This document shows positions 6,141 to 39,076 of a stretch of 64,000 nucleotides of DNA, piece by piece. Where the stretch lies: the NCBI RefSeq assembly GCF_000740895.1, contig NC_025261.1:868001-932000 (forward strand). Reading direction: 5' to 3'. Under the pieces are notes generated by a model. That model saw only the letters and a list, made by a program, of their open reading frames with translations. It had not been told where the DNA came from and ran no database searches. This DNA is from Theileria orientalis strain Shintoku. Lineage: Eukaryota; Apicomplexa; Aconoidasida; Piroplasmida; Theileriidae. Position 1 is the stretch's first letter. The number at the start of each line of letters is the position of its first letter. A program made the position numbers and the translations under genes.

Positions 6141-8660
6141 TCAGTTGGGCTTCGACCTTATCTTTGCCTCGAGCAGCAGCCTCAGCAGCTGTCCCTCGTC
6201 CATGATCGAGTGGTTCTGCGTCTTCGCCTTGTCCGAGTGCAACTGATTCTTCAGTCTTATGAACATTGAGTTCTGCTTCGACTCGTCTATGGTGTTCTTG
6301 CGTTGTCCGTTTCCGTTTCCGTTTCCGTTTCCGTTCCCTCCGTATCCTAGCCCTTGGCGTGCTTCGTTCGAGGCCTGCCTCTGTCCCTCGTGGAAGTTAA
6401 GTCTTTCCTGGAGGCTCGCTCTGCTGCTTTCAGAGTAGCTGCTTCGCCCGTTATCACCGTAAATTTTTCCGTTGTCACCGTAAATTTTTCCGTTGTCACC
6501 GTAGCTTCTTCCATTATCACCGTAGCTTCTTCCATTATCACCGTAGCTTCTTCCATTATCACCGTAGCTTCCTCTCAAATAGCTGCTCGAGCTCAATGCT
6601 CCCAGGGAGCCGTGTCCGTTGTTTCCGCTGAGCGTTCCGCTGTTACCCGTGTAGTTCTGGCGCACGTTATCTCCGTACTTCTGGCGATTAACGCTGTTGA
6701 TCATATTGCTCAGATTGTTCAAATTGTTCATATTACCCATATTACTCATATTAACCATATTGTTCATGTTGCTAGTTCCGGCTCCGCTGTTTGTTCCAAT
6801 CCTTTGATCGTTGAAGCCTTCGTACTGGCGGTAGTTCTGCTGATCTCTTACGTTCGCCTGTCTTTCCATCATCTGGTTCTGCTCCCTCATGAACGACAGT
6901 GAGAATATGTGCTTGAATGACTGTATCAGGTCCGTCGAAGGGTCGCATTTGTTTCCGTGTTCGTTTGAGAAGACTGACTTGCTCATCTTTTCCTTCGCTG
7001 CTCCTGCGTCATGGCTCTTCACGTTAGGCGGACTGTAGAGCAGCGGATTTTCTCCCGTGCTCTTCAGCGTTGTGAATATCGGCGATCCTGGTGCCTTCGA
7101 GAACCTCGTGTTCGTCAGACTAGTCGTCGGGGGCACGCTCACTGACTGCTTCGTCGTCTTCTGCAGCATCTTCGGTCTGTACACTGCTTTTCTTACCAGC
7201 GACTTTCTCACTCTCGGCCTTATGAAATCCTTTTCGTCCTGGTTTCCGCAGAACCACGAGACGTCGTAGCACTCATCTACGCTCTCGCTCGCGATCAGGT
7301 ACCCTTCGCAGTTAAATATTTTATAAAAATTGTCCACCTTCATTCTCGGGAACGTCGATGCTGTCATGAAGTACTTCGAGTCCAGTGACCACTCTGAAAT
7401 CACTGTACATGGCTCCTTGAATTGCACTATTTGTTCCATTTCATCGCTTTCCTCCTTCTTGTACCAGAAACATATCTCTCCTGCTAGGTTTCCAAAGCCT
7501 CCTAGGGCTACCATGTTTCCCATCGGGTTCCACTTAATCGTGTTTCTGTACATGTTCGGGAACTCGAACAGTGTTTCCAGTTCCGCGTTGTAGAGCGTGA
7601 TTTTGCACGGCATGTTTCCTTGCATCAGGATGAACTCGTCCTTCTTCGGGTTCCACCTAACGTCGTGCGTCGTCGCTGTGTTTACTTTGCTCACGAGTCT
7701 TCCTGTGTTCGAGTATAGCAGGCAGTTTGCTGTTGAGCCGTACTTTTCTCCTGCCATGTCCACTGTCGACTGCGCCACTGCTATCAGGTTCTGCCCTGAG
7801 GGCGACCAGAGCAGCTCTGCTGAGTCTGTGAACCTCAGCTCGTGGTTTTCGCACTGCACCTCCTTCAGCGCCTCTCCGGTCCACTCCAGCGTCGAGATGC
7901 GCAGGTTTCCCGGCGTGTTGTTCGCGTCCGTCGGGGAGAAGCACGCCAGGTACGCCTTGTCTCCTTCGCTCAGGCATCCGTTCTTCTGCGGTTTGTGGAA
8001 CACTTCCACGCTGAACACCATTGGCACTGCTATTGAGAGCAGGCAGCGCACGGTCTTCAGCGACGAGGGCTCCGACGCTATCGAGTACACGTTAACCTGG
8101 TGGTTGTGGCACAGTGCGAAGTTGTCCGAGTCTCCCAGCCACTTGATCACTGGCCACTGCTCCGGCGACAGCCTTCTCGTGCTGAAGGTCGCCACTATGT
8201 TTTTCTTCGAGATGTCCCATATGTGCAGGTTGTCGTCCAGGCACAGTCCTGCCTCCGAGTAGTTTGGCAGGTTAAAGTACACTGCCAAATAAATTCCGTT
8301 GTTCGACCACTGCAGGTGCTTAATGTTCTTGCATCCGAGCGGCGTGTACATGTTCTTAAACTTCCCCACTCCTCTCAGTGTGTCTATTGCCAGGTCCGAG
8401 CTCACTCCGTTTTTCATGTATATGATTGACAGTCCTGAGCGGTCGTCCAGCACTGCCAGGTTGTTGTTGTATGAACACACGCACTGTCTCGCGAACCTGT
8501 CCTGTGACCATATGCAATCCGGCTTAAAGTTGTTGATTAGCTCCGTGGGCTCCTCCTCTGAGGAATTCCCATTTTTTGCTGTGTCGTTTTGCAATGTGTT
8601 GATGGGTATACATCTGTATATGTAAAACCCATTTTTCGTGTGTAACGTGAACAAATTCAT
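6141..8660 (-). CDS. EIF2A: Eukaryotic translation initiation factor 2A
   Basis: A single exon encodes about 839 residues. The start is the ATG at 8660 (MNLFTLHTKNGFYIY); the frame is open a few codons further but has only a TTG there. Residues about 1-560 form an eIF2A-type WD40 beta propeller, with characteristic stretches such as DVRWNPKKDEFILMQGNMPC and NTIKWNPMGNMVALGGFGNL. The family delivers initiator tRNA to 40S subunits independently of GTP in some settings; it is cytosolic. The C-terminal 280 residues are low complexity: an Asn/Met-rich tract (NMNNMVNMSNMGNMNNLNN), about six heptads of SYGDNGR/IYGDNGK (around residues 700-741), an NG-dipeptide run, and a final conserved-looking helix (DEGQLLRLLLEAKIRSK). 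That tail is longer and more repetitive than in animal eIF2A. A spacer of about 1 kb lies upstream. Confidence 0.92.
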   Translation of the reverse strand: MNLFTLHTKNGFYIYRCIPINTLQNDTAKNGNSSEEEPTELINNFKPDCIWSQDRFARQCVCSYNNNLAVLDDRSGLSIIYMKNGVSSDLAIDTLRGVGKFKNMYTPLGCKNIKHLQWSNNGIYLAVYFNLPNYSEAGLCLDDNLHIWDISKKNIVATFSTRRLSPEQWPVIKWLGDSDNFALCHNHQVNVYSIASEPSSLKTVRCLLSIAVPMVFSVEVFHKPQKNGCLSEGDKAYLACFSPTDANNTPGNLRISTLEWTGEALKEVQCENHELRFTDSAELLWSPSGQNLIAVAQSTVDMAGEKYGSTANCLLYSNTGRLVSKVNTATTHDVRWNPKKDEFILMQGNMPCKITLYNAELETLFEFPNMYRNTIKWNPMGNMVALGGFGNLAGEICFWYKKEESDEMEQIVQFKEPCTVISEWSLDSKYFMTASTFPRMKVDNFYKIFNCEGYLIASESVDECYDVSWFCGNQDEKDFIRPRVRKSLVRKAVYRPKMLQKTTKQSVSVPPTTSLTNTRFSKAPGSPIFTTLKSTGENPLLYSPPNVKSHDAGAAKEKMSKSVFSNEHGNKCDPSTDLIQSFKHIFSLSFMREQNQMMERQANVRDQQNYRQYEGFNDQRIGTNSGAGTSNMNNMVNMSNMGNMNNLNNLSNMINSVNRQKYGDNVRQNYTGNSGTLSGNNGHGSLGALSSSSYLRGSYGDNGRSYGDNGRSYGDNGRSYGDNGKIYGDNGKIYGDNGRSSYSESSRASLQERLNFHEGQRQASNEARQGLGYGGNGNGNGNGNGQRKNTIDESKQNSMFIRLKNQLHSDKAKTQNHSIMDEGQLLRLLLEAKIRSKPN
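6450..6575 (-). repeat. 21-bp coding minisatellite in eIF2A
   Basis: About six tandem 21-bp units encode the heptad SYGDNGR with IYGDNGK variants. Two unit types are visible at DNA level: the unit read on the plus strand as accgtagcttcttccattat and the one read as accgtaaatttttccgttgtc. A short hexanucleotide run (ccgttt, about four copies at 6310-6335) encodes the following NG repeats. The copy number is likely to vary between isolates. Confidence 0.85.
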
Positions 8661-22465: not shown

Positions 22466-23905
22466 TTAACAATAAGACAGTGATTTAACGTATTCTGTGC
22501 CTTCTGGCTTTGGGAAATTATGGATAAAGTGCTTCATTTCCTCTAAACACTTTGTGATTGACACGTCCTACAACATTGTTAAGGTTGGACATGTGTACCT
22601 CTACTTTAAGGTCGTCTCCTTCCAAACTCTTCGTAACGACGCAGAAACACTTTTTGTTCTTCCTCTCCTTGATTCCCGACTGTCCCACCTCGAACCCGTG
22701 TACCTTTCTGGAATCTCCACCCTTCTTTTGCTTTGAATTTGGGTGGTATTCCAGCAGGAATGATATCTGAGGGCTATTTGTTTTTGATTTAACATACCAA
22801 TTTTCCTGCTTGTGAATCCAGTGTTATTTTGGTGCCTACTTCCAAATCGTTCAGCATGGAGGTGAGCATCGTTTTAATCGACCCGAAGTTCCTTACGACA
22901 AAGTCGTCTAAATTGTTTAATTGTTAGGCTCTACTAGTACCTATTTGAATTGGCGTTGCCATTGAGGACGACTTTATCCTCTGGAGGTCCTTTGAACGGG
23001 AGTTTAGTGTGCTCAAGCTCATTGCCTTAAAGGTACATTTGGTTGCTCATTCACTTACCGATATAAACTTCTTGTACTGGGACTCATTGTCTATCAACTT
23101 CAGTTTGATTTCGGCATCGTTAATGAGTATCTTTTCATTTTCAATGTCTGAGAAGTTTGATGTTTTTGACAACCAGGCGAAACATGATCCCTCAGATATT
23201 GGAGATATAAATCTCACCTTAACCTAAGAGTGGTATTAACAGGGGCATGGATACCTTGTTGGTGTCATTTATGGCCTGCTTTATTACACCCCAGTCCGTT
23301 GTTTCCGGGGGTATGTTTGTAATAACTACCATCGGCCCTGCAACGTGGAATGTTTCCGGGGTCTCTCCAAACTTCTTCTTCTTCGCCAACGGCTTCCTTC
23401 CAATGTATTTTGGCAGTGGCCCCTTCAACTTAATGTAGAAATTTCCATCGTGGTCTTCAAAGGATAAGTTGGGAATTGCGTTTTCTGATAGAATCTTCTT
23501 TATGTCCTCGACCGTTGCTTTTATCTCGGTCATGCGCTTGGCGCTCAGTATGTATTTTACATCGATAACGTTCTAAGAATTGTTAAACGTGGTTTATTTA
23601 CCTCTAGTCCAGTGCTCGCTGAGTCTTCTGTGAATTTGGTATGATAAAAATGGTCGATTGACAAATTATCGGAGGATAGGTAAAATGAGAGCTGCCTGGT
23701 GATAAAATCAAACCTTTGCTTCTCAGATCCATATAAAACGATAATGTTAAAATCGTCATTGTTTATTCTCTCTTTCTTCAATATTAAATCAATTTCGGAA
23801 AAATCAGGGTGACGCTTGGCAGGATGAACTAAATAAATAAATTATAAATATATATAAAATACCAGGAGTTGAATCGGCTTTTCTCTTATTATTATGTGAA
23901 TCCAT
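22466..23905 (-). CDS. La (Lupus antigen)-type RNA-binding protein
   Basis: Minus-strand, about seven exons, start at 23905 (MDSHNNKRKADSTP, basic). A La motif is visible as RFDFITRQLSFYLSSDNLSI followed by DHFYHTKF, with the second half in the next exon (DIKKILSENAIPNLSFEDHD). An RRM follows (GPMVVITNIPPETTDWGVIK), then EGSCFAWLSK and a late RRM-like part with KVRNFGSIKTMLTSMLNDLE. La protects the 3' UUU-OH ends of RNA polymerase III transcripts and helps them fold, in the nucleus. The 3' end is the least sure part: reading through gives a stop at 22518, but a 31-32-nt intron near 22574-22605 would join to DVSITKCLEEMKHF and end at 22466, which I prefer. The start is only 14 bp from the edge of the duplicated block. 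Confidence 0.75.
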
Positions 23906-24171
23906 TGTAGTTTTTAATATAATTATATTTAATTTTAAATTGTTTTGTGTTTATTGTGTCGTTGTCGTATACCCAATGATTCCTCTTGTGATAATTATGT
24001 TTATTGTTTATTTTTAAATTTTGAATATATTTTACATTGTTTTATTAATAATTGTTTTGATTAATCGTTATTTGTTTATAATTATTTAAGTCATTTGTTG
24101 TTATTGATGTGTTGTTATATGATGTTAATAACTGTTAATTGTTTTAATTTTTGAATATTGATGATTTAAAT

Positions 24172-26106
24172 ATGAAATTGAATATATCATCTGATGATAT
24201 TAATTTACTTGTTTATCGATATTTGATTGAGAACGGGTTTGTTTTTACATTATAACATTTAGTTATTATGTATACATTTTTACCATGTTACTTATACACA
24301 TACATATTAATAACTACATAAATATTTGATATATGAGATTTGTCATTATGTTTAGATATTGTCATACTGCTTTTTGTTTTAATAAGGAAGCTAGTATTAA
24401 CACTAATCCTTTTTATGGTAACCATGCTGATAAGATTCCTCCTAATGCTCTGGTTTCATTTATGCAGAAGGCTATGATTTATATATATCTTGAATATCAT
24501 ACTGATGATATAACTGGAGAGCAGATTTTATGTGATGAATCATTTTCATTTTTTCGTAAACACAACTGTTTTCGAAAGTTAGGTCAGACTCATGGATTAC
24601 CTCTATCGCAATCAAACTTTACTCACACTGAGGATAAAGATCAACTCGATAAATCTAATGTTAATAATAACTCTTCTGCTGTTAAACCTGAATTCGGTAC
24701 GTTATTATATACATAGTTATTATTGTGTGTATTTACTTACATACATAGTTATTATTGTGTGTAGTTATTTACATAGTTGACACTACTCATAATTAACACA
24801 CTTTTATTAATAATTAGATTTGACTAATACTGGATTCACACCTGATGATATATTGGAGAGCAACAGTAGTTTATTTCAACTTAATCATCCAGTTTATGTG
24901 GGACCTCCTCAGAGACGTTTATCAGACAAATGGCAACTATACGGTTACCACAAATTATTCGAATACAAATGTTCTAACTTATCTACAACTTGTCATTTTA
25001 ACCCAGCGTATCCCGGATATGTTTTAAAAATGTACGTTCAACTATTAATAATTATAATAATAACAATGTTTAGAGTTGTGGATGCTCCATCTAGTTTATA
25101 TAAATTAAACGACAATGGCAAGGCATCGATATGTGAGATACTATTACCACATGCTAAACTATCATCGAATAAATATGATCCAGGTGTTACCACGTCGTCG
25201 AAATGGAGACCAGATGGAGTTGCAGTATGTACAGGTCACTCGGATGGCAATGTTAATTTGTGGTCAATGGAGGGACATTATATGACGTCAGTGCGTGTGG
25301 AAGCAGCAGTGACAGCAGTGGCCTTTTCTGGAAGTAGAGCATATTGGAACGAGGTTGATGCAGCAGATGTGCCATACTACGTAGCAGTGGGATGTGCAAC
25401 AGGACAAGTGCTGGTATACAAGGTGGACAAAAATAAATTTAAACTGTTTAAACAGTATAGCCATACCACATGTGTAACAGATGTCGAATGGAAGTCACCC
25501 ACTGTAGTATCCTCAACCAGTATGGGAGGAAATCTAGTCTTGTACGATGTTACCAGTGATTCAAGTAAGGAACTCATGTTGTCATCAGTAAACAATGTGC
25601 CATTCATGGAGTGGGACTACTACGGTAGGTACCTAGCAATGGTGGATGATACGGAAATATTCAAGGTGTATAAGCCAAAAGAAAATGAAGTAGATGGCGA
25701 ACTGGTACTGCTAAGTGGACACAAAGCTAAACTTATAGGAGCTTCCTGGTATTCAGGAATATTCGAAAAGTCATCCTGTAGAATATGTACAATAGCCATG
25801 GATAAGCAGATGATAGTCTGGGACGTAGCTGCAGAGTGCTTAGTCATGTCCCTTGCATTGGATCAAATGCCAACCACGGTATCAGTCTCACCAAACGACA
25901 GCCTGGTGGCGATAGGATCATACGGAAACAGCATTAAAATGTACGCGCTCCCAAACCTTACACTCGTATGCTCATTCTACGATCAAACGGTACCAACTAA
26001 TGTTAGTTGGTCTGCAGATAGACAACACCTCCTGTACAACGTGTTTAATCTGCAGAGAACACTCATAGTGCCTCTCAATACACTCTCCTCAATTCAATCT
26101 GATTAA
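24172..26106 (+). CDS. TBL1-like LisH/WD40 corepressor protein, copy A
   Basis: Four exons (24172-24236, 24356-24696, 24818-25031, 25074-26106) give 550 residues. Exon 1 is a LisH motif (SSDDINLLVYRYLIENG) that continues in exon 2 as YCHTAFCFNKEASI, followed by PPNALVSFMQKAMIYIYLEY, the F-box-like helix order of TBL1/TBLR1. Exons 3-4 give a WD40 propeller: CTGHSDGNVNLWS, TDVEWKSPTVVSSTSMGGNL, LSGHKAKLIGASWY and MDKQMIVWD. In animals this protein is a core part of NCoR/SMRT-HDAC3 complexes, linking chromatin and ubiquitin-dependent exchange of cofactors in the nucleus. The 42-nt intron at 25032-25073 is a multiple of three, so a careless reading adds a false hydrophobic stretch (LLIIIIITMF). 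The protein is identical in copy B. Confidence 0.88.
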
Positions 26107-26545
26107 ATCACTTTACACATTTATAACTTGGTAACGCTGTGGTAGGCCTCTAAAAGTATATACCTTAGATTTATCTAAAATTTGTATATTTTGTTAGTAT
26201 GCAATGGATGTGTATATTTATGTGTAGATTTGAGTGTTGTCTATTTTGTTTAGTTATAATAACGTTGTATCTATGGGGTCATAATTGATATATGTGTAAC
26301 AAGTATACATATTTACATAGAATCAAATATATAAATACTAAATTTGTTGATGTATTTTAGTTTTGATTGAATTAATAACATGTTTGAGTACTTTGAATAT
26401 TGTTAGCGTAACTGGTTACGTTTGCTGTTGTTTGATATGTGTGTTATGTATATTATTTAATGTAATATATTTTGAATATAACTTATGATTTGATTGTAAC
26501 ATAGCTGTGTTTGTATTTTTTGATTTGTATTATATTAATTTAGCG

Positions 26546-29026
26546 ATGGAATGTCTTTTACCTAGTACTGCTTTTGACAAAGATAAATCAGAAGCTGTTG
26601 ATGAGTCTGGTGATTCTACCAAATGTGTAGAGTCAAATCAGCTTAACTCGAGTTGTGGTAGCATTTGTGATATTTCGACTCCGATTTGTAACAACGATGA
26701 TGATAAGCCAGCTAGTTTTGGGAATAAGATATCTTCAGTTACTACTGACTGCACTAGTTTGAAGAAGGCTGAGAATGATTCTGGTTCATCGGAGGTGAAG
26801 AATGATGTTGTTGATATTGGTTCTAAATCGCCTGGTTTGAATGAGAGTTTGAAAAAGTTGAAGAAGCAGGGTGGTAGTTTCGCTTTGGATGATTCTTTGT
26901 CTAGTGTTTCGTTCATGGATAGTGACTTTGCTGCTTGTGTGGATCCCCTTGAATCTATGGACTACGTGGAAAGTGAGGCTAAAGCTAATGAGACCCGTAC
27001 TCCCATTAAGTCTCTTACGTCACCAGGTAGAGAGTTAGAGCTGTTCCGTGAAGACTACACTCATTTTGAGCGTCCTCATGTAAAAATTAGTGACATTGAG
27101 TTTAAGAAGCCGGTTGTTGACAACTCAGTTGCTAGTTTTGCAGAAAGTGATTTGGATGTCCCACCTGAAATTTTGAGTGTTCCTCGTTGCTGGACTGACC
27201 GCTTTGAGAACGAAGTATTTGAGGATTCAATTTCGGCCTCTCAGAGTCCCGTTAGAAGTTTGGCTAGTTTAATAAACTCATCTCAAAACGACATTTCTGG
27301 TTCATCAGTGAGACGTTTTAACTACGGTGTGGACGTCACTCCGATTAGATCTTATAGCAGGAGCATCAGTCGTGTTGGTAAAAATTTGCACAACTTTGAG
27401 AGTTTCGACAACTTTGCCTCGGACAACATAGAAGACATGTGCAAGATGGCATCGAATCCCATGTATAATGTCAGCTTGTCTTATGAAGAGATTGGTCGAA
27501 TAAAATTGCCTGATGTGTTTAACATTATGTACAAACAATTCAAGAACATGTGCACTATTGTTCAAAGATCAACCATCCGGAACGAGAAGTCTTACTTTCG
27601 TGTAGTAAAGATGTATCTTCAACGCATTACCCGGAGGACTTTCAAAATGGACAATTTACTTCAAATGGTCTGGTTGGCTCCCAACTTGGTGAACATCAAA
27701 TGGGTTACCATAACTGGCGAGACTTTAAAGAAATACTCTTTTGAGTATAAGGATTCTACCACCAAGGCCTATGACCTAAGCATAAAGATTCTCAGACCTG
27801 ATCTCGTAAGTTGTTCCACCACTGCTGATTATGAAGTAGCATGCTTCATGTTCAAAAATATTCTTTGCACCTGGACACTAAAGTGTGAGTGTGATAGGAT
27901 GGATAAGATCCCAGTACCCATTGCCAAGCTTCCACCCAGGAACACTCGATCAAACTCATCGACACCCCTAAGACTTGGCAGTTCATTTTCAACACCAAGA
28001 AAATTTATTGACTCTTTGGGCACTCCACACAGACTTAGTAACTCACAGTTATCATCTATGCTACTGGATGATTCACAGATTACTCCTATAAGGCCACTGT
28101 TACAACGTACTCCTACGAGGTCACTGTTGTCTCAACGTTATTCTAGTAGACCACTAGTTTCAGAACGTTATTCGAGTAGGTCATTATCACAACTCACTCC
28201 CATGAAGCTCGATGGTACAACACCAGTGAGACCTAATGATAAGACTGAAGAAGAGATGAACAAGACACCTGTTCGCAGTTTGCTGAGAAGTGTTATGTAC
28301 GACTTTTTGGATGATACTCCTAACAAGTCATACAAGATTACAGGTGCCAACTCAGTGACCCGTTCATCTAAACGAGCCAAGACTATGGACATGGTGTCAC
28401 CTATGTGTCCTGACTTGTTGGAAACTCCTGGTATGCGACGCATTCGTGAGAACGCAAAGCAACGCGAGATTCAAAAGAAGACTAACATGGAACGTGATAA
28501 AGATTTAGCTTTCTGGAATGATATGAAATGGTTCATTAAGGTTTTACTCGAAATAATCGTTGGTGACATGTCACCTGATATTAAAATCGAGTTTTTTGTA
28601 GACTTCATGAAAAAGTATGGAACTCGCAAGCCAACACAAGGTATTCATTATTTATATACACTGATGTTACTATTGATAATTACACACTGATGTTACTTTT
28701 GTTACTAATTACACACTGATGTTACTATTGTTACTAATTACACACTGATGTTACAATTGTTACTAATTACACACTGATGTTACTATTGCCAGTTACTTAT
28801 TACCAACTACACACTGTTATTAGTTACTAATACAATTACTAATCAATATATAGACCAAGTATCAAAGTGGATAGACGCACTAATCGAAATCGACCCCGTT
28901 ATCATATCTAAGTCAGTTTCTAAACTGGACAATAATACTACAATTGTTACCATCAATAAATCAGCATCGCTCGATAAAGCCATAGACTACGTTGATCAAA
29001 AAATTAACACATTCAAAACAGCTTGA
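26546..29026 (+). CDS. CDT1: CDT1-like replication licensing factor, copy A
   Basis: Two exons (26546-28640, 28854-29026) give 755 residues. The start is the ATG at 26546 (MECLLPSTAFDKDKSE). Residues 1-260 are Ser/Asp-rich and disordered, with SP/TP sites. The middle holds the Cdt1 fold: LPDVFNIMYKQFKNMCTIVQ, then RITRRTFKMDNLLQMVWLAP and VNIKWVTITGETLKKYSFEY, as in the geminin-binding region. A long linker rich in TPxR motifs (STPLRLGSSFSTPRKF, ITPIRPLLQRTPTRSLLSQR) suggests CDK phosphorylation. The C-terminus (VLLEIIVGDMSPDIKIEFFV, VSKWIDALIEIDPVIISKSV) fits the winged helix that contacts MCM. CDT1 loads MCM2-7 at origins. Its TGA ends one base before the complement of the TFIIA-gamma stop on the other strand. 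Confidence 0.78.
28641..28853 (+). repeat. Minisatellite in CDT1 intron, copy A
   Basis: The 213-nt intron is built of tandem copies of a unit of about 29 bp around acacactgatgttactattg followed by ttactaatt. Copy B has the same intron at 220 nt with the units in a different order, so this tract has changed since duplication. Confidence 0.85.
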
Positions 29027-29027
29027 A

Positions 29028-29575
29028 TTAATTAAAATCCTTTATCCCATTTATTTTCATTGAATTTGTTGTCATTTTTATTTTATCTATTGTTATCTTT
29101 GGCGATTGTATATAAAAGACCCACTTCCGGTCCTCGTTTTTATAGTTTATGATTTTACCCTTAATCTTTATTGGAGATTTTCTCTTTTTTGAGAATTGTA
29201 GCTTCCTTATATCATTGATTGTCTCGTACAGTGCCTACAAAATTGTGTGAATTATGAGTTTACCTGTCTATGAAACTCAACGATCTCATAGAAAACCTGA
29301 GGAGAAATAACATTTTTTGTGATAAAATCCTGTAAAGTATGCTGTAAAGAAACTCCACAGTGAAGTCTCAGATGAGATTTATCGTAAATTAAAGAAGAAG
29401 AAGAAAGAGAACAGCCGTATTTTATACAACTCAAGGGCAACGTATATATCTTTTGCTTCTTCTTTTGAGGCTCATTGGCAGTACATTCCTCAGAATGTTT
29501 AACCTTAGGAGGAGGTAATAATCCCTCATCAAGGTAGGTGGCAATATCAGAATCAAATAACCTGTAACTGCTCAT
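29028..29575 (-). CDS. TFIIA gamma-like small subunit
   Basis: Two exons (29575-29264 and 29234-29028) with a 29-nt intron give 172 residues. An N-terminal extension of about 75 residues (MSSYRLFDSDIATYLDEGLL, then KKKQK) precedes the family core. The core reads YDKSHLRLHCGVSLQHTLQD, then ITKNVISPQVFYEIVEFHRQ, which parallels the YRxSTxGxxLxxTLDE and ITPQLAxKVLxxFD helices of TFIIA gamma/TOA2. The second exon gives INDIRKLQFSKK, KIKGKIINYKNEDRKWVFYI, matching the KxKxTFKGxLxTYRFCDNVWTFI beta barrel. TFIIA stabilises TBP on promoters in the nucleus. The match is by motif order, not by identity, so other small basal factors remain possible. The stop (29028-29030) lies inside the duplicated block. 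Confidence 0.65.
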
Positions 29576-29921
29576 ATTTATGATACGACAAAAATTGAAT
29601 TAGAAAATAAATTACCATTAAGGAAGATGTGTTAATAAAAAAACATTTTTAATGAAAAATAAGTTTGTAAAATTATGTAAAGTCTAATTTTAAAAAAATT
29701 GCGTAAAATATAAACAATGAACAACAATCTGTGATGTTATGTGTAAGGCAGAAAATTCATATTTTATTTATTTCTATAAATATTTTTCATTTTATACTAA
29801 TAATTTTTTGTAACATAGATTTATATATTATTTTTCAATATCAGTATTATTTGTTATTGCAATTCATCGCAAACGTTTAAAAATCAATAAACAAATGTTT
29901 TAATTATCTTATTTAGAATTT
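29576..29921. promoter_or_regulatory. Divergent spacer, TFIIA-gamma and DCC1-like
   Basis: A 346-bp very AT-rich spacer between head-to-head genes; it must hold both promoters. No RNA or defined site is visible. Confidence 0.45.
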
Positions 29922-32279
29922 ATGTTTTCTGATTCTTCTGGTTCTTTTTGTAGAAGTCAGGAATTACCATATAATTATGGGCACACTGACTTCTCGAATT
30001 CTTCAGTCGAGAATGTACACACACGTTACAAGATTCTATTGTACAAAAAGGGATTGAACCATGTGAAAGATAGAAGTTCGCTCAATTGGATTAAAATACT
30101 TGATTTGAGCGGAGACGTTGATCAATTGTCGGAAGAACAAAAATCAGAAGATGCGACCTCTGTAAATAACGATTCGGGTGTAAAGGGCAACGGGTCGAAT
30201 CATAAGAGTAATGGAAAGGAAAATGATTCATTGGATTCAAAGTGCATTCAAAACTGTTTTAAGAAGAAGGATGGGACGGTGGCAGATAACGTAGCTGAAA
30301 ACGGAGAAGAAAACGCTAGAATTTGGGGGAAGTTGTTAGGGAATATAAAAGGGTCTTGGCCAAATAAGCCGGAAAAGGAGGAGTTATATCTGACGGTGGG
30401 ACCCTACGTCCTAAAGGGTAATCAAGCGAATTTTAGAGAAGGGGAGTATTATGTAATTCTGAGAAAGGTGCCTGACCACTGTTCCTGCGTCTGCACAGAC
30501 GCAAGCCTCCCAGGCGAAACGCACACCAGCCACTCGGCCTACTACGAAATATGCGGGATCGTAAACGAAAAGATAGATTTCAAGCACCGCCCGAACTTCT
30601 ACAGCAGCACAGACGAGTCGCATCTAGAGGAGTACTACCTGTACCTGTCAGATTGTAAGAACAGCAACTGGTTCATGCTCAAAGTGGACGACGAAATATT
30701 GGATAAAATACTGCAGGAAGAGGCGTACTTTAAGATCGTGAAGACCGGAGAAAACGATGAAAGCAAGAAGGCAGTGCTGTGCATACTCAACAGTACGTAC
30801 TACATAGAAAGAATTGAGCTCGCAGGGACGCTGATGCTGATCTTCTCGCCACATGACCTCGGAGGAGGGGCAGACGAGGAAAACCTGCTGGTGATAGCAG
30901 GGTCATCAAAGTACGCGTACGGCCTGGTGAAGTCGAATCCAATATTCGAGAGCCTGCCGAAGCTAAAGAGCATTGAGACTGCATCGCTGTTGAAGCAAAC
31001 GCCGATTTCAGACCTGGAAATCGTGGACTTCATCCTGGGAAAGTACGAGGAGTACCCGTGCTACTACCTGTACCAGACGGATGGAACGATAAGGTACGTG
31101 GGCCAGTACCTCTTCGGAGAGTTCGCGGTGAGGGTGATACAGGTGATACCGATGTATTTTTCAAACAACCCGGGGGAGAAGAAGAGGATATCGGAGTTGA
31201 CGGTCGGGGACGTGTGGAAGATGATGAACCTGTACAGCGACGTCTTCGAGTTCGTGCCGACCGACGTGTTCAACGTGGCGACCGTGTTCCAAATGCTGCT
31301 CCAAGTCTCAGACCTGACTGAGACGTTTGCAACGATGGAGGGGTACCTGGGCATGATGATGAGCGACGCTGTCTACAGCTGCAACGTCAAGCTGAACCTG
31401 TTCAAGATTCAGAAGCTGGTGAGCTGGTGCCTGGTCTCCTCCAACTACCACAAGGACATGGACTACCAAAGCTACGTGTACCACATCGACGACATCCTGT
31501 TCAACAGGGCAGTGCCCTCGTACGTGTTCGAGGAGCTTCTGGAGTACGTGGTTAACATGGAGCCGGAACACGCGAACCAGCGGCTGTTGGACTACAGGAG
31601 CTGCATACAGTTCTACTACAAGAACCTCACGTTCTCAGAAGTGGCGGCTCTGCTGAGTGAGTCGGGCAGCAGGGACGGCTACGAAGTTAAAGCAGCTACC
31701 ATTTTCGACAGGACGGGACCGAGCCTGTTTGCGATGGAGGAGTTGAACTTCAGCGGCGGAGGGCCGCTTAGCAAACTCCCGTGCCTGAACTACAACGTTT
31801 ACAGAACTAACACGAAGGGTCTGACGAACCTGAGGTTCGGAAACTCGATGAACTCGCTTCTGGGGATTTGCAGGTGCCCGCTGGCGCTGCACATAGCCCA
31901 TCTCTCTGAAAAAATGGTAAGCGTCACGGAGGGAGGCCGGTGTGTGCTCAAGATATATCCAAAGGTAAAGCACGAAAGCCTGAGAGAAACGCTCTCGGAG
32001 ATGTTTAAGCTTAAGAACTCGTGGCACTTGGAGGTGCTGGAGAATAAGCTGAGACCTTTTTTCAGGGAGAAACCGGCAATTGACATCCTCACGGGTGCTC
32101 CGGACTACCATGGGAGGCTTTTGATCACGAAAGAGGTTAACAGCAAAAATTATAGGAACAGAAACGAAATCGCTGAGTTTAAGCACGAAACTGTCGATGA
32201 GTGGAGGAGAACAAAAGTGGAGTTGAAACCAATCAAGGAGGAGTCGTACATGATAATAAACTGGAATGTTCCAGTGTAA
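29922..32279 (+). CDS. DCC1-like sister chromatid cohesion protein
   Basis: A single exon of 785 residues. Residues 1-150 are a disordered Ser/Asn/Lys-rich extension. From about 280 the DCC1 order appears: SKKAVLCILNSTYYIERIEL and GTLMLIFSPHDLGG (first barrel), YAYGLVKSNPIFESLPKLKS, then SDLEIVDFILGKYEEYPCYY. Helical and winged-helix parts follow: ELTVGDVWKMMNLYSDVFEF, LTFSEVAALLSESGS and the end block GGRCVLKIYPKVKHESLRET with LSEMFKLKNSWHLEVLENKL and RPFF, which parallels the FLLKVEDLP...FNSLFSLREKW...I..YI C-terminus of DCC1. In other eukaryotes DCC1 with CTF8 and CTF18 forms an alternative PCNA loader for cohesion at forks. At twice the usual length (about 390) and with low identity, the call is moderate. 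It is flanked by the two copies of the CDT1 block. Confidence 0.6.
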   Translation: MFSDSSGSFCRSQELPYNYGHTDFSNSSVENVHTRYKILLYKKGLNHVKDRSSLNWIKILDLSGDVDQLSEEQKSEDATSVNNDSGVKGNGSNHKSNGKENDSLDSKCIQNCFKKKDGTVADNVAENGEENARIWGKLLGNIKGSWPNKPEKEELYLTVGPYVLKGNQANFREGEYYVILRKVPDHCSCVCTDASLPGETHTSHSAYYEICGIVNEKIDFKHRPNFYSSTDESHLEEYYLYLSDCKNSNWFMLKVDDEILDKILQEEAYFKIVKTGENDESKKAVLCILNSTYYIERIELAGTLMLIFSPHDLGGGADEENLLVIAGSSKYAYGLVKSNPIFESLPKLKSIETASLLKQTPISDLEIVDFILGKYEEYPCYYLYQTDGTIRYVGQYLFGEFAVRVIQVIPMYFSNNPGEKKRISELTVGDVWKMMNLYSDVFEFVPTDVFNVATVFQMLLQVSDLTETFATMEGYLGMMMSDAVYSCNVKLNLFKIQKLVSWCLVSSNYHKDMDYQSYVYHIDDILFNRAVPSYVFEELLEYVVNMEPEHANQRLLDYRSCIQFYYKNLTFSEVAALLSESGSRDGYEVKAATIFDRTGPSLFAMEELNFSGGGPLSKLPCLNYNVYRTNTKGLTNLRFGNSMNSLLGICRCPLALHIAHLSEKMVSVTEGGRCVLKIYPKVKHESLRETLSEMFKLKNSWHLEVLENKLRPFFREKPAIDILTGAPDYHGRLLITKEVNSKNYRNRNEIAEFKHETVDEWRRTKVELKPIKEESYMIINWNVPV

Positions 32280-32587
32280 AAAGTCGTAAATAATGTAAAT
32301 TTAAGTAAATCGAGCAGACGGTGAACATTTTAAAATAATTATATTTAATTTTAAATTGTTTTGTGTTTATTGTGTCGTTGTCGTATACCCAATGATTCCT
32401 CTTGTGATAATTATGTTTATTGTTTATTTTTAAATTTTTAATATATTTTACATTGTTTTATTGATAATTGTTTTGATTAATCGTTATTTGTTTATAATTA
32501 TTTAAGTCATTTGTTGTTATTGATGTGTTGTTATATGATGTTAATAACTGTTAATTGTTTTAATTTTTGAATATTGATGATTTAAAT

Positions 32588-34522
32588 ATGAAATTGAATA
32601 TATCATCTGATGATATTAATTTACTTGTTTATCGATATTTGATTGAGAACGGGTTTGTTTTTACATTATAACATTTAGTTATTATGTATACATTTTTACC
32701 ATGTTACTTATACACATACATATTAATAACTACATAAATATTTGATATATGAGATTTGTCATTATGTTTAGATATTGTCATACTGCTTTTTGTTTTAATA
32801 AGGAAGCTAGTATTAACACTAATCCTTTTTATGGTAACCATGCTGATAAGATTCCTCCTAATGCTCTGGTTTCATTTATGCAGAAGGCTATGATTTATAT
32901 ATATCTTGAATATCATACTGATGATATAACTGGAGAGCAGATTTTATGTGATGAATCATTTTCATTTTTTCGTAAACACAACTGTTTTCGAAAGTTAGGT
33001 CAGACTCATGGATTACCTCTATCGCAATCAAACTTTACTCACACTGAGGATAAAGATCAACTCGATAAATCTAATGTTAATAATAACTCTTCTGCTGTTA
33101 AACCTGAATTCGGTACGTTATTATATACATAGTTATTATTGTGTGTATTTACTTACATACATAGTTATTATTGTGTGTAGTTATTTACATAGTTGACACT
33201 ACTCATAATTAACACACTTTTATTAATAATTAGATTTGACTAATACTGGATTCACACCTGATGATATATTGGAGAGCAACAGTAGTTTATTTCAACTTAA
33301 TCATCCAGTTTATGTGGGACCTCCTCAGAGACGTTTATCAGACAAATGGCAACTATACGGTTACCACAAATTATTCGAATACAAATGTTCTAACTTATCT
33401 ACAACTTGTCATTTTAACCCAGCGTATCCCGGATATGTTTTAAAAATGTACGTTCAACTATTAATAATTATAATAATAACAATGTTTAGAGTTGTGGATG
33501 CTCCATCTAGTTTATATAAATTAAACGACAATGGCAAGGCATCGATATGTGAGATACTATTACCACATGCTAAACTATCATCGAATAAATATGATCCAGG
33601 TGTTACCACATCGTCGAAATGGAGACCAGATGGAGTTGCAGTATGTACAGGTCACTCGGATGGCAATGTTAATTTGTGGTCAATGGAGGGACATTATATG
33701 ACGTCAGTGCGTGTGGAAGCAGCAGTGACAGCAGTGGCCTTTTCTGGAAGTAGAGCATATTGGAACGAGGTTGATGCAGCAGATGTGCCATACTACGTAG
33801 CAGTGGGATGTGCAACAGGACAAGTGCTGGTATACAAGGTGGACAAAAATAAATTTAAACTGTTTAAACAGTATAGCCATACCACATGTGTAACAGATGT
33901 CGAATGGAAGTCACCCACTGTAGTATCCTCAACCAGTATGGGAGGAAATCTAGTCTTGTACGATGTTACCAGTGATTCAAGTAAGGAACTCATGTTGTCA
34001 TCAGTAAACAATGTGCCATTCATGGAGTGGGACTACTACGGTAGGTACCTAGCAATGGTGGATGATACGGAAATATTCAAGGTGTATAAGCCAAAAGAAA
34101 ATGAAGTAGATGGCGAACTGGTACTGCTAAGTGGACACAAAGCTAAACTTATAGGAGCTTCCTGGTATTCAGGAATATTCGAAAAGTCATCCTGTAGAAT
34201 ATGTACAATAGCCATGGATAAGCAGATGATAGTCTGGGACGTAGCTGCAGAGTGCTTAGTCATGTCCCTTGCATTGGATCAAATGCCAACCACGGTATCA
34301 GTCTCACCAAACGACAGCCTGGTGGCGATAGGATCATACGGAAACAGCATTAAAATGTACGCGCTCCCAAACCTTACACTCGTATGCTCATTCTACGATC
34401 AAACGGTACCAACTAATGTTAGTTGGTCTGCAGATAGACAACACCTCCTGTACAACGTGTTTAATCTGCAGAGAACACTCATAGTGCCTCTCAATACACT
34501 CTCCTCAATTCAATCTGATTAA
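32588..34522 (+). CDS. TBL1-like LisH/WD40 corepressor protein, copy B
   Basis: The exons are those of copy A shifted by 8,416 bp (32588-32652, 32772-33112, 33234-33447, 33490-34522) and again give 550 residues. The only coding change I found is 33610 (ACA for ACG, both Thr), so the two proteins are identical. The LisH start, F-box-like segment and WD40 repeats are all intact, as are the splice signals, including the in-frame 42-nt intron. Because about 250 bp upstream of the ATG is also duplicated, the proximal promoter may have been copied, but the sequence beyond it (DCC1 3' end) differs from copy A (La 5' end). Confidence 0.88.
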
Positions 34523-34961
34523 ATCACTTTACACATTTATAACTTGGTAACGCTGTGGTAGGCCTCTAAAAGTATATACCTTAGATTTATCTAAAATTTG
34601 TATATTTTGTTAGTATGCAATGGATGTGTATATTTATGTGTAGATTTGAGTGTTGTCTATTTTGTTTAGTTATAATAACGTTGTATCTATGGGGTCATAA
34701 TTGATATATGTGTAACAAGTATACATATTTACATAGAATCAAATATATAAATACTAAATTTGTTGATGTATTTTAGTTTTGATTGAATTAATAACATGTT
34801 TGAGTACTTTGAATATTGTTAGCGTAACTGGTTACGTTTGCTGTTGTTTGATATGTGTGTTATGTATATTATTTAATGTAATATATTTTGAATATAACTT
34901 ATGATTTGATTGTAACATAGCTGTGTTTGTATTTTTTGATTTGTATTATATTAATTTAGCG

Positions 34962-37539
34962 ATGGAATGTCTTTTACCTAGTACTGCTTTTGACAAAGAT
35001 AAATCAGAAGCTGTTGATGAGTCTGGTGATTCTACCAAATGTGTAGAGTCAAATCAGCTTAACTCGAGTTGTGGTAGCATTTGTGATATTTCGACTCCGA
35101 TTTGTAACAACGATGATGATAAGCCAGCTAGTTTTGGGAATAAGATATCTTCAGTTACTACTGACTGCACTAGTTTGAAGAAGGCTGAGAATGATTCTGG
35201 TTCATCGGAGGTGAAGAATGATGTTGTTGATATTGGTTCTAAATCGCCTGGTTTGAATGAGAGTTTGAAAAAGTTGAAGAAGCAGGGTGGTAGTTTCGCT
35301 TTGGATGATTCTTTGTCTAGTGTTTCGTTCATGGATAGTGACTTTGCTGCTTGTGTGGATCCCCTTGAATCTATGGACTACGTGGAAAGTGAGGCTAAAG
35401 CTAATGAGACCCGTACTCCCATTAAGTCTCTTACGTCACCAGGTAGAGAGTTAGAGCTGTTCCGTGAAGACTACACTCATTTTGAGCGTCCTCATGTAAA
35501 AATTAGTGACATTGAGTTTAAGAAGCCGGTTGTTGACAACTCAGTTGCTAGTTTTGCAGAAAGTGATTTGGATGTCCCACCTGAAATTTTGAGTGTTCCT
35601 CGTTGCTGGACTGACCGCTTTGAGAACGAAGTATTTGAGGATTCAATTTCGGCCTCTCAGAGTCCCGTTAGAAGTTTGGCTAGTTTAATAAACTCATCTC
35701 AAAACGACATTTCTGGTTCATCAGTGAGACGTTTTAACTACGGTGTGGACGTCACTCCGATTAGATCTTATAGCAGGAGCATCAGTCGTGTTGGTAAAAA
35801 TTTGCACAACTTTGAGAGTTTCGACAACTTTGCCTCGGACAACATAGAAGACATGTGCAAGATGGCATCGAATCCCATGTATAATGTCAGCTTGTCTTAT
35901 GAAGAGATTGGTCGAATAAAATTGCCTGATGTGTTTAACATTATGTACAAACAATTCAAGAACATGTGCACTATTGTTCAAAGATCAACCATCCGGAACG
36001 AGAAGTCTTACTTTCGTGTAGTAAAGATGTATCTTCAACGCATTACCCGGAGGACTTTCAAAATGGACAATTTACTTCAAATGGTCTGGTTGGCTCCCAA
36101 CTTGGTGAACATCAAATGGGTTACCATAACTGGCGAGACTTTAAAGAAATACTCTTTTGAGTATAAGGATTCTACCACCAAGGCCTATGACCTAAGCATA
36201 AAGATTCTCAGACCTGATCTCGTAAGTTGTTCCACCACTGCTGATTATGAAGTAGCATGCTTCATGTTCAAAAATATTCTTTGCACCTGGACACTAAAGT
36301 GTGAGTGTGATAGGATGGATAAGATCCCAGTACCCATTGCCAAGCTTCCACCCAGGAACACTCGATCAAACTCATCGACACCCCTAAGACTTGGCAGTTC
36401 ATTTTCAACACCAAGAAAATTTATTGACTCTTTGGGCACTCCACACAGACTTAGTAACTCACAGTTATCATCTATGCTACTGGATGATTCACAGATTACT
36501 CCTATAAGGCCACTGTTACAACGTACTCCTACGAGGTCACTGTTGTCTCAACGTTATTCTAGTAGACCACTAGTTTCAGAACGTTCCTCGAGTAGACCAC
36601 TAGTTTCAGAACGTTCCTCGAGTAGACCACTAGTTTCAGAACGTTCCTCGAGTAGACCACTAGTTTCAGAACGTTATTCGAGTAGGTCATTATCACAACT
36701 CACTCCCATGAAGCTCGATGGTACAACACCAGTGAGACCTAATGATAAGACTGAAGAAGAGATGAACAAGACACCTGTTCGCAGTTTGCTGAGAAGTGTT
36801 ATGTACGACTTTTTGGATGATACTCCTAACAAGTCATACAAGATTACAGGTGCCAACTCAGTGACCCGTTCATCTAAACGAGCCAAGACTATGGACATGG
36901 TGTCACCTATGTGTCCTGACTTGTTGGAAACTCCTGGTATGCGACGCATTCGTGAGAACGCAAAGCAACGCGAGATTCAAAAGAAGACTAACATGGAACG
37001 TGATAAAGATTTAGCTTTCTGGAATGATATGAAATGGTTCATTAAGGTTTTACTCGAAATAATCGTTGGTGACATGTCACCTGATATTAAAATCGAGTTT
37101 TTTGTAGACTTCATGAAAAAGTATGGAACTCGCAAGCCAACACAAGGTATTCATTATTTATATACACTGATGTTACTATTGATAATTACACACTGATGTT
37201 ACTTTTGTTACTAATTACACACTGATGTTACTATTGCCAGTTACTTATTACCAACTACACACTGATGTTACTATTGTTACTAATTACACACTGATGTTAC
37301 TATTGTTACTAATTACCAACTACACACTGTTATTAGTTACTAATACAATTACTAATCAATATATAGACCAAGTATCAAAGTGGATAGACGCACTAATCGA
37401 AATCGACCCCGTTATCATATCTAAGTCAGTTTCTAAACTGGACAATAATACTACAATTGTTACCATCAATAAATCAGCATCGCTCGATAAAGCCATAGAC
37501 TACGTTGATCAAAAAATTAACACATTCAAAACAGCTTGA
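34962..37539 (+). CDS. CDT1: CDT1-like replication licensing factor, copy B
   Basis: Two exons (34962-37146, 37367-37539) give 785 residues, 30 more than copy A. The extra residues are three additional decapeptides of the type SSSRPLVSER in the linker before the SP/TP-rich region, from an expanded 30-bp repeat at about 36553-36687. All else, including the Cdt1-fold centre and the C-terminal MCM-contact region, matches copy A. Both copies have intact frames and splice sites, so two functional genes are expected unless one is silenced. As CDT1 level limits origin firing in other eukaryotes, two copies would raise dosage unless controlled; that is inference. After the stop the sequence becomes an AT-rich spacer rather than the TFIIA-gamma gene. 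Confidence 0.78.
36553..36687 (+). repeat. Expanded 30-bp coding repeat in CDT1 copy B
   Basis: Four complete copies of a 30-bp unit containing tagtagaccactagtttcag (or gagtagaccac...) followed by aacgttcctc or aacgttattc encode SSRPLVSER plus Ser or Tyr. Copy A has one such unit at the same place. The middle three units in copy B share the cctcga variant, which points to slippage or unequal exchange after the block was duplicated. Confidence 0.92.
37147..37366 (+). repeat. Minisatellite in CDT1 intron, copy B
   Basis: A 220-nt intron of tandem acacactgatgttactattg-type units, with a different unit order and one extra partial unit relative to the 213-nt intron in copy A. Confidence 0.85.
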
Positions 37540-37547
37540 ATTAATTA

Positions 37548-38098: not shown

Positions 38099-39076
38099 AT
38101 GTCGGACTACAACTTGACCTTCCTTCCTCCAAAAGCTAGGAAGTACGTCAATCCTTACGTACCCTTCGTCCTCGGAGGCCTCTCTGGCTGCACTTCTACC
38201 ATGATAATTCAACCGATAGATATGGTTAAGGTTAGAATCCAGGTGTATGCTGCAACACAGCGAGGCTCAGTTTCACCGTTTACCATGATTTCCATGATAT
38301 TTAAAAACGAAGGGATGCTCTCGTTCTATAAGGGCCTGGACGCAGCCTGTGCGCGTCAGCTTCTATATACAACAACGAGGTTGGGACTCTTCAGGTCACT
38401 GTCAGACCACATCAAGGCCAAAAATAAAACAAAAACGATACCTTTTTATCAAAAGTGCGCGCTGAGCATGTTCTGCGGAGCTGTGGGAGCGATGGTTGGG
38501 AATCCCGCAGACCTGGCTCTGGTGAGGATGCAATCGGATGCTACAGTGAGCGCAGACCAGAGGAAAAACTACACAAGCCTCTTCAACACCATTTACAGGA
38601 TCGTCAAGGAGGAGGGGATCCTGAACCTGTGGAGGGGCTCCCTGCCAACAGTGGTTCGCGCAGTGAGCCTGAACCTGGGCATGCTCTCGTCTTTCGACCA
38701 GAGCAAGGAGGTGCTGGCGAAGTACATCAAGGAGGGGACACTGCTGCACACCTGCCTGTCGAGCGCAGTCGCAGGCTTCTTTGCAGTCACCTTCAGCCTC
38801 CCCTTCGACTACGTGAAGACGTGTATGCAGAAGCAGAACCAGAAGGGCACCGCGTACAAGGGCATCATGGACTGCATCATCCGGAACTACTCGGAGGGCG
38901 GCATTTTGCGCTTCTACTCCTCGTACGCAACCTACTACGTGAGGGTGGCCCCGCACGCGATGCTGACCCTCATTCTCATGGACACGTTCACGAAGTTTTT
39001 GAAGGGAGGCAAGCCGGGGTCGAAGCCGAAGCTTCCGCCCAAGCTCCAGGCGAAGGTCGAACAAGTGGCCGAGTAA
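38099..39076 (+). CDS. Mitochondrial carrier, oxoglutarate/malate type
   Basis: A single exon of 325 residues with the three-fold SLC25 repeat. Each repeat shows a PxD/ExxK-type signature at the end of its first helix: IIQPIDMVKVRIQV, GNPADLALVRMQSD and FSLPFDYVKTCMQKQ. The second-repeat signature ALVRMQSD together with RKNYTSLFNTIYRIVKEEGI and GSLPTVVRAVSLNLGMLSSF is that of the oxoglutarate/malate and dicarboxylate-tricarboxylate carrier group. It exchanges dicarboxylates (and perhaps tricarboxylates) across the inner mitochondrial membrane, linking the TCA cycle with the cytosol. Length and residues are normal. Coding sequence is GC-rich compared with the spacers on both sides. Confidence 0.92.
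   Translation: MSDYNLTFLPPKARKYVNPYVPFVLGGLSGCTSTMIIQPIDMVKVRIQVYAATQRGSVSPFTMISMIFKNEGMLSFYKGLDAACARQLLYTTTRLGLFRSLSDHIKAKNKTKTIPFYQKCALSMFCGAVGAMVGNPADLALVRMQSDATVSADQRKNYTSLFNTIYRIVKEEGILNLWRGSLPTVVRAVSLNLGMLSSFDQSKEVLAKYIKEGTLLHTCLSSAVAGFFAVTFSLPFDYVKTCMQKQNQKGTAYKGIMDCIIRNYSEGGILRFYSSYATYYVRVAPHAMLTLILMDTFTKFLKGGKPGSKPKLPPKLQAKVEQVAE

What the first reader, a model, noticed from the sequence alone, without database searches (positions are those of the whole stretch)
23919..37547. Near-identical 5.1-kb direct duplication of a TBL1-like/CDT1-like gene pair
Blocks 23919-29034 and 32335-37547 match almost base for base (three substitutions found) and include complete promoters, introns and two genes. 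The 3.3 kb between them is unique and carries TFIIA-gamma-like and DCC1-like genes. Such identity means a very recent duplication, gene conversion, or a mis-assembly; the differing repeat lengths and different flanks argue against a simple assembly error. Two copies of a replication licensing factor and a chromatin corepressor next to each other would be a notable dosage change.
Basis: seen in the sequence. Interest (0 to 1): 0.85.

Follow-up and report, generated by a model that had tools for sequence, protein, structure and literature searches.

The report
Young duplicated gene pair in Theileria
A 5.1-kb stretch carrying two whole genes, one like a gene-silencing cofactor and one like a DNA-replication control factor, appears to have been copied very recently into a second place 3.3 kb away in a cattle parasite's chromosome; it looks real but is an ordinary kind of event whose effect is unknown.

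Summary
Blocks 23919-29034 and 32335-37547 are direct copies with three substitutions in 4,927 aligned bases. They also differ in two minisatellites: 90 bp in frame in the CDT1-like gene, and a reshuffled array in its intron. The genome matches Theileria orientalis Shintoku. Each block carries complete TBL1-like and CDT1-like frames. The block has two places in this genome, the middle one.

New here is a direction. At copy 1 the stop codon and last codon of the neighbouring TFIIA-gamma-like gene lie inside the block. With copy 1 removed, that gene would read in frame through the next gene's ATG. So copy 1 is probably the original, and copy 2 was inserted between the DCC1-like and carrier genes. 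The copies are about four times more alike than two Ikeda isolates (0.61 against 2.68 differences per kb, PMC5921998). The duplication, or the last gene conversion, is therefore probably strain-level young. Assembly error is unlikely but was not excluded with reads. A dosage effect is untested. The Toxoplasma CDT1-related protein restrains reduplication (PMC11148040), so 'extra licensing factor' is not a safe reading.

The parts
23919..29034 (+). copy 1 of the duplicated block; inferred original location
32335..37547 (+). copy 2 of the duplicated block; inferred insertion between the DCC1-like and mitochondrial carrier genes
24172..26106 (+). TBL1-like gene, copy 1; exons 24172-24236, 24356-24696, 24818-25031, 25074-26106; 550 aa, identical to P0008 (Shintoku 'transducin beta-like protein 1')
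26546..29026 (+). CDT1-like gene, copy 1; exons 26546-28640 and 28854-29026; 755 aa, identical to P0001 (TOT_020000436)
32588..34522 (+). TBL1-like gene, copy 2; same protein as copy 1, one synonymous base difference (33610)
34962..37539 (+). CDT1-like gene, copy 2; exons 34962-37146 and 37367-37539; 785 aa with three more 10-residue units
28139..28177 (+). coding minisatellite of copy 1 (short state: one full unit and the start of a diverged one)
36555..36683 (+). coding minisatellite of copy 2 (three more 30-bp units, 36585-36674, in frame)
28641..28853 (+). CDT1-like intron of copy 1 with minisatellite, 213 bp
37147..37366 (+). CDT1-like intron of copy 2 with minisatellite, 220 bp, units in another order
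29028..29575 (-). TFIIA-gamma-like gene, single copy; its stop codon (29028-29030) and last codon (29031-29033) lie inside the block end
29922..32279 (+). DCC1-like gene, 785 aa, single copy
23903..23905 (-). start codon of the upstream divergent La-domain-like gene, 13 bp outside the block
38099..39076 (+). mitochondrial carrier gene downstream of copy 2, with 551 bp of its own upstream sequence

Best explanation
This is a young, DNA-level segmental duplication. A 5.1-kb segment holding a TBL1-like and a CDT1-like gene, with introns and 253 of the 266 bp between the upstream La-like ATG and the TBL1-like ATG, was copied from its original place (copy 1). It was inserted in the same orientation 55 bp after the DCC1-like gene (copy 2), in the Shintoku (Ikeda) lineage or shortly before it. 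The likely route is replication-based template switching, or an 8.4-kb tandem duplication followed by loss of the second 3.3-kb middle. AT-rich microhomology at the borders would have served either route. Since then the copies have gained three point changes and minisatellite changes. Shown: the two copies in the assembly, intact frames, borders, differences and the sequence behind the direction argument. Inferred: the direction itself, the mechanism, the age, that both copies are expressed, and that the duplication is real in the parasite rather than only in the assembly. The most likely functional outcome is near-neutral redundancy or a modest dosage increase.
For: Sharp borders and 3 substitutions in 4,927 bp. 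Introns are retained, so it was not copied through spliced RNA. The block has 2 places and the middle 1 place in the genome. The TFIIA-gamma-like stop codon and last codon lie inside the end of copy 1. Without copy 1 that frame meets no stop before the La-like ATG, passes it in frame and ends 33 codons later. Without copy 2 a 606-bp DCC1-carrier spacer remains; the mean intergenic length of this genome is 407 bp (PMC9323827 Table 3). The sub-threshold TFIIA_gamma_C match ends seven residues before that stop codon, as expected for a natural protein end. Left flanks share six bases next to one mismatch, seen in 0.15% of random AT-rich pairs (post hoc). Copy difference 0.61/kb (95% CI 0.13-1.78) against 2.68/kb between the Ikeda isolates Shintoku and Robertson, P = 0.0009 if rates are equal (figure from PMC5921998).
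Against: No reads were available, so copy number in the organism is untested. No syntenic DNA from Chitose, Buffeli, T. annulata or T. parva could be fetched. The age assumes a clock and compares one locus with a genome average. Gene conversion could make an older duplication look young, and two of three substitutions lie within 129 bp of the left border (P = 0.008 for either border, post hoc, n = 3). The TFIIA-gamma-like label, on which 'natural protein end' leans, is below Pfam cut-offs. The microhomology is short, and ATAATTAT occurs 12 times in the window, so the mechanism is only inferred.
Confidence: 0.74

Rival explanations
1. An older duplication shared by more T. orientalis lineages, kept alike by gene conversion between the two copies.
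For: Two of the three substitutions lie within 129 bp of a border, as conversion tracts that seldom reach the ends would leave them. The copies are near each other in direct orientation.
Against: n = 3, and the two are in non-coding DNA. No stretch of lower identity outside the minisatellites is seen in the blocks. The minisatellites have not been homogenised.
Confidence: 0.15
2. Assembly artefact or a mixture of clones: one parasite has only one copy, and the reference joined two versions of the locus.
For: No read depth could be checked. Isolates of this species can hold several haplotypes (PMC5921998 passages).
Against: An error would have to make two new base-precise junctions around copy 2 that join the block to unique sequence on both sides. 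The middle has one place, there is no N in the window, and the copies differ at five separate places: three substitutions and two minisatellites.
Confidence: 0.07
3. The reverse direction: copy 2 is the original place and copy 1 is the insert.
For: The longer coding array of copy 2 holds bases absent from copy 1, so copy 1's array looks like the shortened one. This bears on the array, not on the place.
Against: Without copy 1 the TFIIA-gamma-like gene has no stop before the La-like ATG and would run into that gene. The La-like ATG would stand 13 bp from the junction with no promoter space.
Confidence: 0.04

Closest known systems
Recent tandem or proximal gene duplicates of piroplasms (two-copy paralogues surveyed in twelve apicomplexans, PMC4053351; 12 of 37 matching passages read)
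   Same: Proximal and direct, and would count as 'tandem' in that survey (at most 5 genes between, at most 1% of the chromosome). Most piroplasm duplicates there are of that kind, and the rarity of intron-less copies fits the retained introns.
   Different: Two adjacent genes copied as one block at 99.9% identity, at 0.89 of 2.22 Mb of chromosome 2. The survey calls segmental duplications rare and nearly all at chromosome ends. T. orientalis was not named in the passages that I read.
Toxoplasma TgiRD1, a CDT1-related protein (PMC11148040; passages read)
   Same: A CDT1-related apicomplexan protein with cyclin-binding (Cy) motifs. The window's gene is also CDT1-like and has RxL-like patterns.
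   Different: [quoted passage not shown] The window's protein passes the Pfam CDT1 model over positions 1-87 of 170. Orthology was not tested.
TBL1/TBL1X corepressor subunit
   Same: N-terminal LisH domain and WD-repeat propeller; best PDB match to the TBL1X N-terminus, E 3.6e-11. Relatives in T. annulata, T. parva, T. equi and Babesia.
   Different: No HDAC3 partner or corepressor role was tested.

Membership tests
recent DNA-level segmental duplication | high identity over coding and non-coding DNA, introns kept | tested here: met
   3 substitutions in 4,927 bp, introns present in both copies
recent DNA-level segmental duplication | sharp borders with unique flanks | tested here: met
recent DNA-level segmental duplication | two copies present in the organism (read depth, spanning reads) | not testable with these tools
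   no reads held
simple tandem duplication | copies abut head to tail | tested here: not met
   3,300 bp of single-copy DNA lie between
CDT1 family | Pfam CDT1 domain PF08839 | tested here: met
   41.4 bits against cut-off 22.6; no PDB chain at E 0.01
CDT1 family | loads MCM and licenses origins | not testable with these tools
   the Toxoplasma relative acts otherwise (PMC11148040)
TBL1 family | LisH plus WD40 propeller | tested here: met
   LisH 38.2 bits against 21.6; ANAPC4_WD40 30.2 against 22.9; the other propeller models and WD40 (26.6 against 27) match below their cut-offs; TBL1X best in PDB
TFIIA gamma | N and C domains in order | tested here: inconclusive
   both match in order but below cut-off: 16.3/33 and 17.1/27 bits; PDB TFIIA subunit 2 only at E 1.6, behind geminin at 0.27
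DCC1 | Pfam Dcc1 PF09724 | tested here: inconclusive
   21.3 bits against cut-off 22.9; relatives below cut-off too, P0007 carries PF09724, and UniRef names the T. annulata relative Ctf8

The most novel reading that the evidence does not exclude
The duplication is a strain-level copy-number change private to Ikeda-type T. orientalis that has already begun to separate two CDT1-like forms. The copy-2 linker carries three more RPLV (RxL-like cyclin-docking) units (11 against 8 RxL-like matches in the whole protein), so it would be held differently by the cyclin-kinase that restrains re-replication. The parasite would thus have gained a second, differently regulated cell-cycle brake beside an extra corepressor subunit.
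Probability: 0.07. Interest if true: 0.65.

Novelty: new member of a known kind. Interest (0 to 1): 0.36.

Why it matters
If real in the organism, the reference strain of the pathogenic Ikeda type has two complete copies of a CDT1-like cell-cycle gene and of a TBL1-like chromatin gene that arose within about the time that separates Ikeda isolates. That gives a roughly dated natural copy-number change to look for in existing reads. It also affects read mapping at this locus, where most short reads from a 5-kb block cannot be placed uniquely, and it counts as two genes in orthologue tables. The border at the TFIIA-gamma-like stop codon is a clean way of telling donor from target in a duplication without an outgroup.

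Tried and rejected
Reading copy 2 as the longer and therefore derived array was rejected. Copy 1 equals copy 2 minus one run of 90 bp (26 equivalent offsets). The extra units hold bases that copy 1 lacks (GTTCCTCG 0 times in copy 1, 3 times in copy 2), so one shortening in copy 1 is simpler than change plus triplication in copy 2. The Chitose protein has a Ser there and a short array, which fits either view of the length.

Target-site duplication by a mobile element was rejected as unsupported: ATAATTAT stands at both borders of copy 2 but occurs 12 times in the window. The two genes described are the only ones recognised in the block; no dedicated search for mobile elements was made.

Retroposition was rejected, since introns are kept.

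Gene order in Chitose and Buffeli from locus tags was tried and failed. The CDT1-like relative was named MACJ_003628 on a contig of 2,233,854 bp, and the DCC1-like one MACK_001405 on a contig of 2,153,779 bp. These lengths equal chromosome 2 of Fish Creek (Chitose) and of Goon Nure (Buffeli) in Table 2 of PMC9323827, so the tags come from different genomes. The TBL1-like cluster showed no such tag. Whether Chitose or Buffeli have one or two pairs could not be told from the cluster tables. A viral-contig scan with the TBL1-like protein matched 5 stretches, none a relative. The original Shintoku genome paper is not held. The terms TOT_020000435, 436, 439, 440 and MACJ_003628 occur in none of the held papers (435, 439 and 440 are my guesses at the neighbours' tags). 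NCBIfam gave no family for the three proteins tried. A proteome paper (PMC9610513) has no 'transducin' or 'WD40' in its main text.

A weak geminin match of the TFIIA-gamma-like protein in the PDB (E 0.27) was not pursued as a geminin claim, because it is not significant and both TFIIA-gamma domains match in order. RxL-like motif counts against shuffles (P 0.06 for copy 1, 0.005 for copy 2, 0.33 for Chitose, 0.14 for P0003) are inflated by the repeat itself and are not evidence of docking.
Full report
Observation. The window lies in contig 2 of a genome of 9,010,364 bases in 6 contigs, at 868001-932000. That total equals the length given for Theileria orientalis Shintoku in Table 3 of PMC9323827. 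The CDT1-like protein of copy 1 is identical to TOT_020000436 of that strain, on a contig of 2,216,979 bp, the length of Shintoku chromosome 2. The TBL1-like protein is identical to that strain's 'transducin beta-like protein 1'. Self-comparison of the 64 kb shows one large repeat, 23919-29034 against 32335-37547 in direct orientation. Global alignment gives three substitutions in 4,927 bases outside the minisatellites: two upstream of the TBL1-like gene and one synonymous inside it. Two minisatellites also differ. Copy 2 has 90 bp more in the CDT1-like frame (755 against 785 aa). The CDT1-like intron has 213 or 220 bp with units in a different order. There are no N in the window. The block occurs at two places in the whole genome and the middle at one.

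Genes. TBL1-like: LisH above its Pfam cut-off, WD40-type propeller matches, and TBL1X as best solved-structure match. CDT1-like: PF08839 at 41.4 bits against a cut-off of 22.6, with no PDB chain at E 0.01. DCC1-like (21.3 against 22.9; its T. annulata relative is named Ctf8 by UniRef) and TFIIA-gamma-like (both domains in order, below cut-off) are weaker calls. Upstream is a divergent gene with a weak La-domain match, 24.4 bits against a cut-off of 37.1. Downstream is a mitochondrial carrier gene (188.4 bits against 22.3).

Which copy is original. CDT1-like copy 1 and the TFIIA-gamma-like gene are convergent, and their stop codons are one base apart (29024-29026 and 29028-29030). The block ends at 29034, so the stop codon and the last codon of the TFIIA-gamma-like gene are part of the block. 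If copy 1 is taken away and the flanks are put together, the TFIIA-gamma-like frame meets no stop before the ATG of the La-like gene, passes that ATG in frame, and ends 33 codons later. If copy 2 is taken away, a 606-bp spacer between DCC1-like and carrier remains, not far from the genome's mean intergenic length of 407 bp (PMC9323827 Table 3). Copy 1 therefore probably sits at the original place, and copy 2 carries a useless tail end of the TFIIA-gamma-like gene. This argument is from sequence alone; gene order in a relative was not available.

Mechanism and age. Introns are kept, so the copy was made from DNA. The two left flanks share six bases next to one mismatch (0.15% of random AT-rich pairs from the window, post hoc). 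This fits a microhomology-guided template switch, or an 8.4-kb tandem duplication with later loss of the second middle; I cannot tell these apart. The difference of 0.61 per kb (95% CI 0.13-1.78) is below the 2.68 per kb between the two Ikeda isolates Shintoku and Robertson (PMC5921998, passages). At equal rates, three or fewer changes would be seen with P = 0.0009. It is far below the Ikeda-Chitose/Buffeli distance (ANI 81.7-82.0%, PMC9323827, section 2.5 read). So the duplication or the last gene conversion is probably strain-level young. Two of three substitutions lie within 129 bp of a border (P = 0.008, post hoc), a hint of conversion that rests on three changes.

Minisatellites. Copy 1 is copy 2 minus one run of 90 bp. 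Because the extra units carry bases not present in copy 1, a single shortening in copy 1 is the simpler history. In the intron, with units named by type, copy 1 reads A B C D E and copy 2 reads A B E C G, where G looks like a fusion of a C-type and an E-type unit (my reading). Both copies have thus probably changed since the duplication. That speaks against an assembler having split one locus.

Function. Both copies have intact frames and nearly the whole upstream spacer (253 of 266 bp), so both can be expected to be expressed; this was not tested. In Toxoplasma the CDT1-related TgiRD1 was found in the nucleus in S, G2 and mitosis, and its depletion did not block licensing in G1; its main role is tied to DNA and centrosome reduplication, and no geminin was found (PMC11148040, passages). 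The added units of copy 2 each bring an RPLV, an RxL-like cyclin-docking pattern (pattern recalled from memory; counts); this is a speculation only.

Known or new. Proximal two-copy genes are the common kind in piroplasms. Segmental duplications are described as rare in apicomplexans and nearly all at chromosome ends (PMC4053351, passages). The main text of the 2022 paper on complete T. orientalis genomes does not contain 'duplicat', 'copy number', 'tandem' or 'collapsed', and no held paper holds the gene identifiers searched. Searches for T. orientalis with CDT1 (0 papers), with duplication (5 papers), for Theileria with segmental duplication (15 papers), and for T. orientalis copy number or gene duplication (15 of 414 listed) showed no title or abstract opening that reports this locus. 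The Shintoku genome paper itself is not held and supplementary tables were not read, so I cannot say that the duplication is unreported.

Verdict. A real-looking, young segmental duplication with a probable direction: a new member of a known kind, moderate interest, effect unknown.

Noticed in passing
window 29028-29575 (-): The gene convergent with CDT1-like copy 1, labelled TFIIA-gamma-like, has a weak, non-significant PDB match to geminin, the CDT1 inhibitor in animals (E 0.27), over its helical part; TFIIA-gamma fits better.
   Followed up: partly
window 6441-6571: A short tandem repeat with copies 81-87% alike, outside the finding.
   Followed up: no
window 28139-28177 and 36555-36683: The CDT1-like linker holds a coding minisatellite of 10-residue units that also differs in the Chitose relative P0002; it could serve as a strain marker.
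   Followed up: partly
P0003 (CDT1-like) and P0007 (DCC1-like): Unnamed relatives from short public contigs (4,951 and 2,558 bp) at 42-44% identity, perhaps of another piroplasm; origin not traced.
   Followed up: no
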